Positions 24,898 to 34,519 of a stretch of 64,000 nt of DNA are shown piece after piece (position 1 is the stretch's first letter; each line of letters begins with the position of its first letter). The position numbers and the translations under genes were made by a program. Source of the DNA: Purpureocillium takamizusanense (Eukaryota > Ascomycota > Sordariomycetes > Hypocreales > Ophiocordycipitaceae); contig NC_063068.1 of assembly GCF_022605165.1 (NCBI RefSeq), positions 2,728,001 to 2,792,000 on the forward strand. Reading direction: 5' to 3'. The notes under the pieces were generated by a model. It searched no databases and was not told where the DNA came from. It saw only the letters and a program-made list of their open reading frames with translations.

Positions 24898-24984
24898 GGT
24901 CGAGTAGTATAACGGTTCAGTACACGGCCTTCACAGCCACGGTCCTCATCGGCCAAGATCCGGGTTCGACTCCCGGCTCGACTA
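24898..24984 (+). tRNA. tRNA-Val(CAC) with a short intron
   Basis: A cloverleaf can be drawn. The acceptor GGTCGAG pairs with CTCGACT (one G-U pair), the D stem GTAT pairs with GTAC around AACGGTTCA, and the T arm CCGGG-TTCGACT-CCCGG is perfect. The anticodon stem CGGCC pairs with GGCCA (one mismatch) only if about 14 bases (936-949 of this 24 kb block) are removed after position 37, the standard site for tRNA introns. The loop then reads TTCACAC, with anticodon CAC (Val). A seven-T Pol III terminator follows at 24992-24998. Isotype is less certain than the tRNA call itself. Confidence 0.8.
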
Positions 24985-31291: not shown

Positions 31292-32128
31292 TCAAATGGC
31301 TGCCGTCTCGCGCTGGTACTTGGCCTCGGCGTCAAAAATCCTCCTCCGCGCGTCCTGGACGCCCTTCTCCGCATCTTGCAGCTCCTTCTCCGTCGCGCCC
31401 ACTTTCTGCAGGTTCCGAGCCGCCTGCACCGCGCGCAGCTTGTCGCACACGAGCTCCCAGTACTTCTTGCCCGCGTCGCCGTCCCCCTCGCCCGCTACGA
31501 CGTAGTTCCCCGGCACGGCGACCGCGCCGTTGGACGGCCCCGCGGGCGCCCGCTTCCCCAGCGAGGCCTTCATCTCCTCGCGCGCCTGCCGCCGACGCGA
31601 CTTCTCCTCCTTCTTCTCGCGGACCCGCCTCCGCGCCTCGGCCAGGTCCTCGACCTCCTGCGCGGCTGCCTCCTGCCGCCGTCGCTCCTCGTCGCGCACG
31701 CGCTGCGCCTCGGCCAGCCGATCTCGCTCCTCCTGCATGGCCGCGCGCTCCCGCTGCGTCTTTTCGCTGCGCGCCCGCGCCGCCGCCTGCTCCGCCGCCT
31801 CGAGGTCGTCGGCGAAACGCTTGCGCTCCTGGTCCATGGCCTGGCGCTCCTGGCGGCGAAGGAGCTTGGCCGCGGACGCGGCGTCGTAGGCGGCCCGCGC
31901 CGGGGGGTCCGCGAGCACGTCACGGGCGCGCTCAAAGAGCTCCCACTTCGCGGCGTCAAAGTCGGCGCCCGCCTTGTCCGGGTGGTACTTGAGTGACCGC
32001 TTGCGCCAGGCGCGATGGATGTCCTCCTTGGTAGTCAGGGCGTCGACGCCCAGCAGCTCGTACAGGTCGACATCCTGCTCGGCGTACTCTCCGGCCAACC
32101 GCAGCAGGTCCCGGTTGTCGTCGCTCAT
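31292..32128 (-). CDS. J-domain protein, Cwc23/Cwf23 (DNAJC17)-like
   Basis: A single exon of 278 aa. The J domain occupies about residues 20-80 (LYELLGVDALTTKEDIHRAWRKRSLKYHPDK), with the HPD tripeptide that stimulates Hsp70. A long, highly charged coiled coil rich in Glu, Arg and Ala follows (about 85-200), and then a C-terminal segment of the DNAJC17/Cwc23 type (YWELVCDKLRAVQAARNLQ). In yeast the counterpart is associated with the spliceosome and with disassembly of post-splicing complexes. A role in pre-mRNA splicing in the nucleus is inferred from this family. No RRM is obvious at the C-terminus. Confidence 0.82.
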   Translation of the reverse strand: MSDDNRDLLRLAGEYAEQDVDLYELLGVDALTTKEDIHRAWRKRSLKYHPDKAGADFDAAKWELFERARDVLADPPARAAYDAASAAKLLRRQERQAMDQERKRFADDLEAAEQAAARARSEKTQRERAAMQEERDRLAEAQRVRDEERRRQEAAAQEVEDLAEARRRVREKKEEKSRRRQAREEMKASLGKRAPAGPSNGAVAVPGNYVVAGEGDGDAGKKYWELVCDKLRAVQAARNLQKVGATEKELQDAEKGVQDARRRIFDAEAKYQRETAAI

Positions 32129-32681
32129 GATCGCGGGCGGGATGCGGCGAGGACGTGTCCGTCAGATGAAGTGGTGAGAATGGGCCAGCAGTGATGTGGG
32201 TAAGAGCGTGTTGAGCTGGGCTAGCGGAAGAGGGGCATCGAGGATTGGGGTGCCTAAGGCTCTGGGAATGAAACAAACGTGAAAACTCGGCCGCAAGGAA
32301 GACGCAAGTTTCCGAGACGCCAAGCAAAAGAGTTGAAGTGTGTTTGGCGTTGAGAACTTGAGAAGAACCAGGTGGTCCCCAAGGCGGCAGGCAGTTGAGG
32401 TCTCGTTTGGGTGATGAGTCAGCCGAAAATGGGTTACACGAACAATGGGCATCCTGGATCCCTGGCCCAGGCCCTTGTGGCTTTACGCTCCACTTGCAAC
32501 TACATTATTACTTTTGTACTGACAGGTTGCAACAAAACCATGCCCATTTAGAGGGCATAACGTTTGGTGATCGAAAAATATATCAAATTATCTAGAGGTT
32601 TCAATGTGGTATCTAATGTGCAGGTAAAACAAGCTTGGTCCTTCGTCATAGACAGCGCGATCCCCTCGTTCTCTTTGGCGC
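32129..32681. other. Intergenic: J-domain gene promoter and hydrolase 3' flank
   Basis: Nothing recognisable beyond the flanks of the two minus-strand genes. Confidence 0.6.
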
Positions 32682-34519
32682 TCATTGTTGGCGCCGCCTT
32701 CTGGGCCGTGACGACGGCTTCCGCCTCTTGCTTTTGTTCGCCCTCTTCTCCGCATGGTCAAACACGTTCGGCGAGCCACCCGATATGTCGAGCAGGTACC
32801 GCTCGTAGTACCCCAACGGCTCCTCCCACATGGTCCTCTGGTTCGGGTCCTCGGGCGCGAGCCTGTCGTCCCCGACGTACTTCCACACCCAGCGCTCTTC
32901 CAACTGCTCCCTGTAGAATTCACGGCCGCTCGCGTCCCGCATGGGAACATCCCGGGCGATTGTGACGCGTTTGAGTCGCCAGTCTGCGAGTGCCTTGCAG
33001 GTCCATATCGACTGATCGTTCAGGCCCAGTCCCTCGCACGCCAGGCGCACGCGCACGGAGCTATGGACGCTCTCGTTGGTGTCTTCCAGGAACTTACCCT
33101 TCTCGAGCTTCGTCTTGGGGTCGACCTGTCGGTAGACGCCTGGTGTCCGCGTCGTCTCCCCCGAGAGTTTGAAGAGGAGGCTCGAGTCCTTTTGGATTTG
33201 GCCCAGAGCCCATGGACGAATTGGCCGGTTGCTCTCGTAGATGGAATCCACGGCCCACTGCTGCATGGCTCGGCGGCTCTTCCTAGGCTTCTTTGCGTGA
33301 GGCAGCATGTAGAATTCCGTGGACTGCTGGATGATGCGGTCGAGGGATGGCCTGTCAAACTCGACGCCCACACTGGCCATCTGGTCCATCATCCCTGCAG
33401 CCCGTCAGCGAGACGAGCGGACCATCATGCGGCGACGAACACTTACATGCCAGGGTCGCGTTGGCAATGCCCTGGTCATCCCAGCCACCTCCACAGTTGC
33501 CATGGTTTCCAGGAAACCAGACCTGCCTAAGATCGGTCCTGAGCCTCATTCTCCGCGGGCGCTCCCAGACGGCAGGACTGAATGGCGGCCGTGTCTCGTC
33601 GAGAGCGAGCGCCTGAAAGGCGTGCTCTATCGTGTCGGACAGGGCCGTGTCGTGCCAGTCGTACGTTCATAGAGTGTTAGCCTGGCGCTCTTCTCAAAGC
33701 TCTCGGCGGCTGTTTTGAAGGGGAGACTTATTCGTCGTTGGACGGGCGTATCCCCACCTTCTCGAGCCAGGCTATGCGGGGGATGCCCAAGCTGCCGACC
33801 GTGTCCCAGACGCACACGGCCTTGATGGTGATGGGTGCGCCGTTCTGCTGCACGACGCGCGTGTAACCCATCTTGGCGAGGCGGACGCGGTACTCGTCGT
33901 CGGCATGCGGGCCCTTGGGCTTGTCCGGGAAGGGGCTGTTGGGGAACGGGTCGTCGTAGTCGTCGTCCATCCAGTGCTGCATATCCTTGAATATGGGGTA
34001 GAAGTGCTCGACGCCCTCGCGGGTGAGAAGGCCTAGGTTGCCAATCATGCCGGCGACGGAGCGCGCGGTGAAGGCGCCCCGGGAGAAGCCCACGAGGAAG
34101 ATATCGTCGCCGTCGCGATAGTTGGCGCACAGGTAGGCATAGGCCTCGCGGACGCGCTGTCCCGCTGTTAGCACCAGAACCGACCGTGCCGGGGGAAACA
34201 GAACAGAGGTGTTTCGCGCGTGGAGAGCCTCGCTCACCTCTGCCAGGCCGACGCCAAAGGCGCCGCCGGTGACGCTGTCCAGCATGTTGCTCCCGCTGCC
34301 GACGCCCGACTCGTAGTTGATGATTTGCAGGGTCCCGTCGGCGCACCGGCGCTTGAAGCAGCGCGAGATGCGCGTCACGTTGGAGGGCACCTGAAGGCCG
34401 CCCTTGCCGCTGAGGAGGCCGGGCTTGACGTAGCCGTAGTCGCTGTTCATCCAGGTGCCGTCGCAGAGCACGATGAGGCGCTTCTTGGCCGGGGCCGCTT
34501 CGCAGTCCTGCCAGCCCAT
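32682..34519 (-). CDS. DUF2235 alpha/beta hydrolase, with one apparent AT-AC intron
   Basis: Four exons are needed: 34519-34238, 34156-33732, 33664-33447 and 33394-32682, giving 545 aa. Introns 1 (81 bp, GTGAGC...GGGACAG) and 3 (52 bp, GTAAGT...CTGCAG) are canonical. Intron 2 (67 bp, 33731-33665) begins ATAAGT and ends TATGAAC. No GT-AG choice keeps the conserved reading NDEYDWHDTALSDTIEHAF, because an in-frame TGA sits just before it. The protein has the DUF2235 signature: KRLIVLCDGTW at the start, the nucleophile serine in LVGFSRGAFTAR, VWDTVGSLGIP, and FQALALDETRPPFSP. The family includes bacterial Tle1 phospholipases; the fungal members are of unknown substrate. The C-terminal 230 residues carry a lysine-rich end (KRANKSKRRKPSSRPRRRR), possibly nuclear. 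Confidence 0.85.

What the first reader, a model, noticed from the sequence alone, without database searches (positions are those of the whole stretch)
33665..33731. Apparent AT-AC intron in a DUF2235 hydrolase gene
On the minus strand the conserved reading NDE/YDWHDTAL is interrupted by 67 bp that start ATAAGT and end TATGAAC, with a CTAAC branch point 10-15 bases before the end. An in-frame TGA lies two codons before the Tyr codon and no AG acceptor falls between them, so no GT-AG or GC-AG choice restores the conserved block. The donor resembles a U2-type donor with G1 changed to A, not the U12 ATATCC consensus. AT-AC introns of this type are rare in fungi.
Basis: partly seen in the sequence, partly recalled or inferred. 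Interest (0 to 1): 0.75.

Follow-up and report, generated by a model that had tools for sequence, protein, structure and literature searches.

The report
Conserved AT-AC intron in fungal hydrolase
A fungal enzyme gene carries an intron with the rare end letters AT and AC instead of the usual GT and AG; protein records suggest that many related moulds share it, and many of their database gene models go wrong at exactly this spot.

Summary
On the minus strand, 33731-33665 (67 bp, ATAAGT...GAAC) interrupts a PF09994/DUF2235 gene (exons within 34519-32682). Of 41 GT-AG and 46 GC-AG frame-keeping pairs tried, none keeps YDWHDTAL; of 47 AT-AC pairs only this one keeps NDE-YDWHDTAL. A 93%-identical protein on a 2,034-bp contig, joined at all three intron positions (so probably cDNA), reads SNDEYNWHDTALSD, as AT-AC splicing predicts. 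In 21 of 203 proteins a model enters exon 3 with Thr before Tyr/Phe, the codon made by intron AC plus one exon base. A Nemania model keeps the whole intron, 51 nt by back-translation. Best reading: an old U2-type AT-AC intron, shared across Sordariomycetes and removed by the major spliceosome. Two U1-like loci have normal 5' ends; minor snRNAs were not detected, without positive control. The kind is known; the inferred deep conservation and repeated misannotation are the new points. The +1 A is seen as DNA only here.

The parts
34238..34519 (-). exon 1 of the PF09994/DUF2235 gene (ATG at 34519)
   Evidence: spliced product hits PF09994 at 290.5 bits
34157..34237 (-). intron 1, 81 bp, GTGAGC...CAG, phase 0
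   Evidence: 117 of 120 listed homologues show no large gap or insert at this junction
33732..34156 (-). exon 2, ends ...AACGACGA (NDE, phase 2)
33665..33731 (-). intron 2, the AT-AC intron, 67 bp, ATAAGT...GAAC, phase 2
   Evidence: junction agrees with P0001; read-through Thr test; break control
33676..33681 (-). branch-point motif GCTAAC, putative branch A at 33677, 12 nt before the intron end
   Evidence: same spacing possible by back-translation in P0013, P0037, P0128, P0130
33447..33664 (-). exon 3, starts G|TAC GAC TGG (YDWHDTAL)
33395..33446 (-). intron 3, 52 bp, GTAAGT...CAG, phase 1
   Evidence: 118 of 120 listed homologues show no large gap or insert at this junction
32682..33394 (-). 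exon 4 with stop codon TGA
   Evidence: CDS of 1,638 nt with stop

Best explanation
Intron 2 (33731-33665) is a genuine U2-type AT-AC intron. Shown: the sequence, the reading frames, the lack of a GT-AG or GC-AG alternative in the range tried, and the protein-level signs of conservation. Inferred: the major spliceosome removes it. By inspection U1 can pair with +2 to +6 (UAAGU) of the donor, and U2 with the GCTAAC branch site. The second step uses AC, 12 nt past the putative branch A, because the A at +1 is matched by C at the last position (the known first-last nucleotide interaction) and no AG lies between the branch site and AC. Excision joins GA to G (Glu) and gives NDE-YDWHDTAL. Retention would end the protein at once, since the codon after NDE reads TAA. 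The same intron, at the same position and phase and with an AC end, appears to be old in the Sordariomycetes (Hypocreales, Microascales, Xylariales by protein evidence). Gene finders that do not try AT-AC therefore cut conserved residues out of many database models.
For: 0 of 41 GT-AG, 0 of 46 GC-AG and 1 of 47 AT-AC frame-keeping pairs keep YDWHDTAL. P0001 (93% identical, 544 aa, longest contig 2,034 bp, joined at all three intron positions) reads SNDEYNWHDTALSD. Junction 2 is gapped in 58 of the 120 homologues listed by the first search, against 3 at junction 1 and 2 at junction 3; among 53 named Hypocreales models 41, 2 and 2, and 6 more are altered without large gaps, so 6 of 53 carry the expected junction (residues). 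In 21 of 203 proteins Thr (ACN) stands before Y/F where a model enters exon 3 from a non-conserved stretch (14 of these among the 120 of the first, unseeded search); a CAG|G end would give Arg. P0192 holds a 17-residue insert exactly at the junction against P0088, implying a 51-nt intron RTAYGT...CTRAC...AC. A branch-to-AC spacing of 12 nt in the window is also possible in P0013, P0037, P0128 and P0130. P0039 (Thr, block cut out) and P0023 (Glu, block present) agree at 522 of 529 aligned residues. Two U1-like loci carry ATACTTACCTTG. In yeast, AT-AC is reported as the most efficient pair after GT-AG (PMC6726248, passages).
Against: No RNA from this species was available. The +1 A is read as DNA in one genome only; in relatives the first intron base cannot be told from protein, since GAA and GAG both give Glu. 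Exceptions to Glu/Asp/Thr among proteins with the motif: P0053 (Cordyceps militaris, Gly), P0134 (Met), P0188 (Trp), P0158 (Gln); the first may be a species with another 3' end. The back-translation found no branch motif in 15 of the 21 Thr models, and its match in P0101 lies in exon sequence; in P0013 the match may straddle the model's own join. P0121-P0123 cross the junction yet read into intron 3, so some lineages seem to lack this intron. The second and third protein searches were seeded with broken models (Thr masked as X), so 21 of 203 is not a frequency. The minor-snRNA searches had no positive control, and U1 itself scored below Rfam's cut-off, so a diverged minor RNA could be missed. 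Some annotation tools do accept AT-AC (PMC4084796, passages).
Confidence: 0.9

Rival explanations
1. The true intron is an ordinary GT-AG or GC-AG one with a shifted junction, and the protein of this species lacks the conserved block.
For: 41 GT-AG and 46 GC-AG frame-keeping pairs exist in the range tried, and many database models of relatives lack the block.
Against: None of these pairs keeps YDWHDTAL, which the 93%-identical P0001 keeps, with one substitution (YNWHDTAL). The cuts differ between near-identical proteins: P0039 lacks the block and P0023 has it, with 522 of 529 aligned residues identical.
Confidence: 0.04
2. Base errors or recent mutations turned a normal GT-AG intron into an unspliceable one (pseudogene or sequencing artefact).
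For: Donor ATAAGT is one change from GTAAGT.
Against: The 3' end would have to have changed too (GAAC against an AG end). The rest of the gene is open and of full length. The AC end seems shared by many genera, by the Thr test.
Confidence: 0.03
3. It is a U12-type intron removed by a minor spliceosome.
For: AT-AC ends and a branch-to-3' distance of 12 nt.
Against: Donor ATAAGT is not ATATCC and the branch site GGCTAAC is not CCTTAAC (consensus quoted in PMC3033335, passages). U6atac, U12, U11 and U4atac gave no match in the 35.6-Mb assembly while U6 and two U1-like loci did; only the best candidates were scored and there was no positive control for the minor RNAs. Surveys find no convincing minor introns in Ascomycota (PMC10639083; PMC2846911; passages).
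Confidence: 0.02

Closest known systems
U2-type (AT-AC II) introns, e.g. human SCN4A intron 21 (named in PMC2831892, passages)
   Same: AT-AC ends with a U2-like donor (G at +5; A at +4 and T at +6 named as improving it)
   Different: Fungal, 67 bp, with a CTAAC branch site, in a lineage for which surveys report no minor spliceosome
AT-AC junctions in Trichoderma longibrachiatum RNA-seq (69 of 14,305; PMC4324775, one section read whole)
   Same: Same order of fungi; branch A to 3' end peaks at 11-14 nt there, 12 here
   Different: A bulk count; the section read has no gene-level or conservation analysis, and the junction table is in a supplement that could not be read here
AT-AC protointron in yeast SUT635 (PMC6726248, passages)
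   Same: AT-AC used in an ascomycete without a minor spliceosome
   Different: Found in a non-coding RNA beside GT-AG use; here it is a coding intron that seems conserved
PF09994 / DUF2235 (Pfam name now T6SS_Tle1-like_cat)
   Same: The host protein matches the whole model
   Different: A fungal protein; the relative P0001 has no sequence match among solved structures at E 0.001. I take the bacterial effector name not to describe its role, which was not tested

Membership tests
U2-type AT-AC intron | AT at the 5' end and AC at the 3' end | tested here: met
   genomic sequence and frame test
U2-type AT-AC intron | U2-like donor (A4, G5, T6) rather than U12 ATATCC | tested here: met
   ATAAGT; criteria from PMC2831892, passages
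U2-type AT-AC intron | Ordinary branch site at ordinary distance | tested here: met
   GCTAAC, 12 nt; peak 11-14 nt in T. longibrachiatum
U2-type AT-AC intron | Spliced in vivo at these ends | tested here: inconclusive
   P0001 has the predicted junction and looks like cDNA, but is from a relative and its genomic ends are unknown
U2-type AT-AC intron | Depends on U1/U2/U6 | not testable with these tools
   needs a splicing assay
U12-type intron | Donor ATATCC and branch CCTTAAC | tested here: not met
   ATAAGT and GGCTAAC; consensus quoted
U12-type intron | Minor snRNAs in the genome | tested here: inconclusive
   0 of 4 families matched; U6 matched over its cut-off, U1 below its cut-off; no positive control
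PF09994 protein | Pfam model over its cut-off | tested here: met
   290.5 bits against 27, positions 1-287

The most novel reading that the evidence does not exclude
The intron is a 'trapped' relict: an AT-AC intron at least as old as the Hypocreales/Xylariales split, perhaps a former U12-type intron that crossed to the major spliceosome when ascomycetes lost the minor one. It cannot easily revert, because both ends would have to change at once. Its immediate in-frame stop on retention might also make weak splicing a dosage switch.
Probability: 0.15. Interest if true: 0.75.

Novelty: new member of a known kind. Interest (0 to 1): 0.5.

Why it matters
It gives a named locus where a non-canonical intron, apparently of the major spliceosome, seems to have lasted across much of a class of fungi, so the published idea that U2-type AT-AC introns become 'trapped' (PMC2831892) can be tested by comparing genomic DNA. 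It also suggests that an intron class left out by many gene finders spoils most of the Hypocreales models examined for this protein (47 of 53) in the same place; other genes may suffer alike.

Tried and rejected
GT-AG and GC-AG alternatives were enumerated and rejected. A compensating U1 was sought: the two U1-like loci found have normal 5' ends. A U12 route was rejected (see rivals). Paralogues: the L002 stretch was read by eye and shows no comparable intron at the like place; L001 was printed but its junction was not analysed. DNA of relatives: one scan of genome contigs (5 pattern matches, none confirmed) and one of viral contigs (none) with P0001. A solved-structure relative of P0001, to place catalytic residues: none at E 0.001. 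A genome-wide count of AT-AC introns was considered and dropped, because by a rough estimate of mine, run in no call, chance matches of so short a pattern would swamp it. No structure was predicted. Papers: ten searches (one search found none); no listed title is about this intron or gene. Passages were read of PMC7072748, PMC3033335, PMC4324775, PMC10639083, PMC9597501, PMC2846911, PMC3577648, PMC4084796, PMC3951366, PMC11719821, PMC3091305, PMC3584512, PMC6726248 and PMC2831892, and one whole section of PMC4324775; no supplement was read. PMC11719821 and PMC3091305 matched only on enzyme-domain names. PMC3577648 names AT-AC among the 0.31% of 2,604 F. graminearum introns with other non-canonical ends; the genes are in a supplement not read.

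Full report
What is there. The window lies in a 35.6-Mb, 14-contig assembly (G000). On its minus strand a four-exon gene runs from 34519 to 32682 and encodes 545 aa, matching PF09994 (formerly DUF2235) over the full model. Introns 1 and 3 are ordinary GT-AG introns of 81 and 52 bp. Intron 2, at 33731-33665, is 67 bp and runs ATAAGT...GCTAAC...GAAC.

Why AT-AC. In the upstream frame a TAA follows GAA at once; in the downstream frame a TGA sits two codons before the Tyr codon with no AG between them. In the range tried (donors -150 to +70 nt of 33731, acceptors to 150 nt past the junction) there are 41 GT-AG, 46 GC-AG and 47 AT-AC pairs that keep frame without stops; 0, 0 and 1 of them keep YDWHDTAL, and that one is 33731/33665. 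Six further AT-AC pairs keep DWHDTAL but lose NDE and the Tyr. A one-base shift (TA-CG) would also give Glu but matches no class known to me.

Support from expressed-looking sequence. P0001 (93% identity, 544 aa, 11 member sequences, longest contig 2,034 bp) reads ...GIRPSNDEYNWHDTALSD.... All three intron positions are joined in it although the window species has introns there, so it is most simply cDNA; that is an inference. P0006, P0023 and P0070, also on contigs of 1.8 to 2.7 kb, read across the junction in the same way.

A control on database models. In the first 120 homologues listed (of 3,545 found), junction 2 has a gap or insert of 4 or more residues in 58, junction 1 in 3 and junction 3 in 2. 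In the 53 named models among these 120 that I assign to Hypocreales by organism name, the numbers are 41, 2 and 2. Six more of the 53 have few gaps but an altered junction (P0008, P0013, P0017, P0021, P0028, P0037), leaving 6 as expected: P0003, P0019, P0020, P0024, P0029 and P0031. A caution: species may lack introns 1 or 3, which would make those junctions easy. In near-identical Trichoderma-like proteins, P0039 lacks the block and P0023 has it, with 522 of 529 aligned residues identical.

The threonine test. If a model enters exon 3 from inside the intron, the codon before Tyr/Phe is made of the last two intron bases and the first exon base. An AC end gives ACN, threonine. Of 203 proteins listed by three searches, the residue is E in 106, D in 4 and T in 21; 30 were classed as cut at W, 29 as cut further down, 6 had no anchor, and 7 were other (K 2 and R 1 are mislabelled cuts; G, M, Q and W one each). 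The classes are by pattern, and a few complete variants fall among the cut ones (e.g. P0171, P0180, P0202). By the names given, the 21 T models are from Claviceps, Emericellopsis, Stylonectria, Fusarium, Clonostachys, Cladobotryum, Trichoderma, Neonectria, Lomentospora, Parascedosporium, Hypoxylon, Daldinia, Nemania, another Xylariaceae, one Aspergillus, and two unnamed records. The Aspergillus case (P0162) is the only one from its order among the T models and may be chance. Masking the residue in the queries avoids favouring T itself, but those queries favour broken models; 14 of the 21 come from the first, unseeded search. Exceptions are P0053 (Gly), P0134 (Met), P0188 (Trp) and P0158 (Gln, an otherwise complete model).

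Inside the relatives' introns. P0192 (Nemania bipapillata) keeps the entire intron...KRCTHE-YVFLGCYLLNYKLTNLT-YQFYNT... against P0088 ...KRCTHE-YQFYNT.... By back-translation this is 51 nt, RTAYGT at the start, CTRAC near the end, AC last. P0017 (NDE-YV...) and, less surely, P0008 (NDE-Y then W) also suggest RTAYGT donors. Among the 21 T models a branch motif could be back-translated in six: P0013, P0037, P0128 and P0130 at 12 nt from AC, as in the window; P0192 at 10 (and, by a second reading, 6); and P0101 at 9, which lies in exon sequence and is chance. Fifteen gave none, as expected if the model's acceptor lies past the branch site, but that was not shown. Whether the first base is A or G cannot be read from protein, as both give Glu; this is the main gap.

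Which spliceosome. The donor has A4 G5 T6, the features cited for U2-type AT-AC introns (PMC2831892, passages), and is unlike ATATCC; the branch site is unlike CCTTAAC (PMC3033335, passages). U6 matched over its cut-off. Two U1-like loci, below Rfam's cut-off, carry a normal 5' end ATACTTACCTTG. U6atac, U12, U11 and U4atac gave no match, with only the best candidates scored and no positive control; surveys report no convincing minor introns in Ascomycota (PMC10639083; PMC2846911; passages). In yeast AT-AC is reported as the most efficient pair after GT-AG (PMC6726248, passages, citing Parker and Siliciano 1993, which I have not read).

Novelty. AT-AC introns of U2 type are known, and AT-AC junctions are reported in Hypocreales (69 of 14,305, PMC4324775; Fusarium graminearum, PMC3577648). 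I found no paper on this intron in ten searches (listed under Tried and rejected), which cover open-licence papers only. The new points are the inferred depth of conservation and the repeated damage to gene models.

Limits. No RNA of this species and no DNA of relatives could be fetched. Some lineages seem to lack the intron (P0121-P0123), so it is not essential.

Noticed in passing
window 31292-32161, minus strand: A J-domain-like ORF (by eye) lies next to the gene on the same strand; two Fusarium culmorum models (P0126, P0127; PF00226 plus PF09994) join the two proteins, which suggests shared gene order and a fused annotation.
   Followed up: partly
proteins P0121, P0122, P0123: These ORFs cross the junction without a break (with a slightly different PFYDE/PFYEE block) yet run into the intron 3 donor (LACK), so a lineage without intron 2 seems to exist.
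   Followed up: partly
protein P0053 (Cordyceps militaris): Enters exon 3 as KLG-FRWHDT, not with Thr; the intron's 3' end may differ there.
   Followed up: no
L006 and L007 (G000 C7 and C8): Two U1-like loci, both with ATACTTACCTTG at the 5' end, below Rfam's cut-off (about 46 bits against 69.5).
   Followed up: partly
L001 4264-4319: A run of 56 G in the assembly.
   Followed up: no
window 24898-24984, plus strand: An 87-bp tRNA match, long enough to hold an intron.
   Followed up: no
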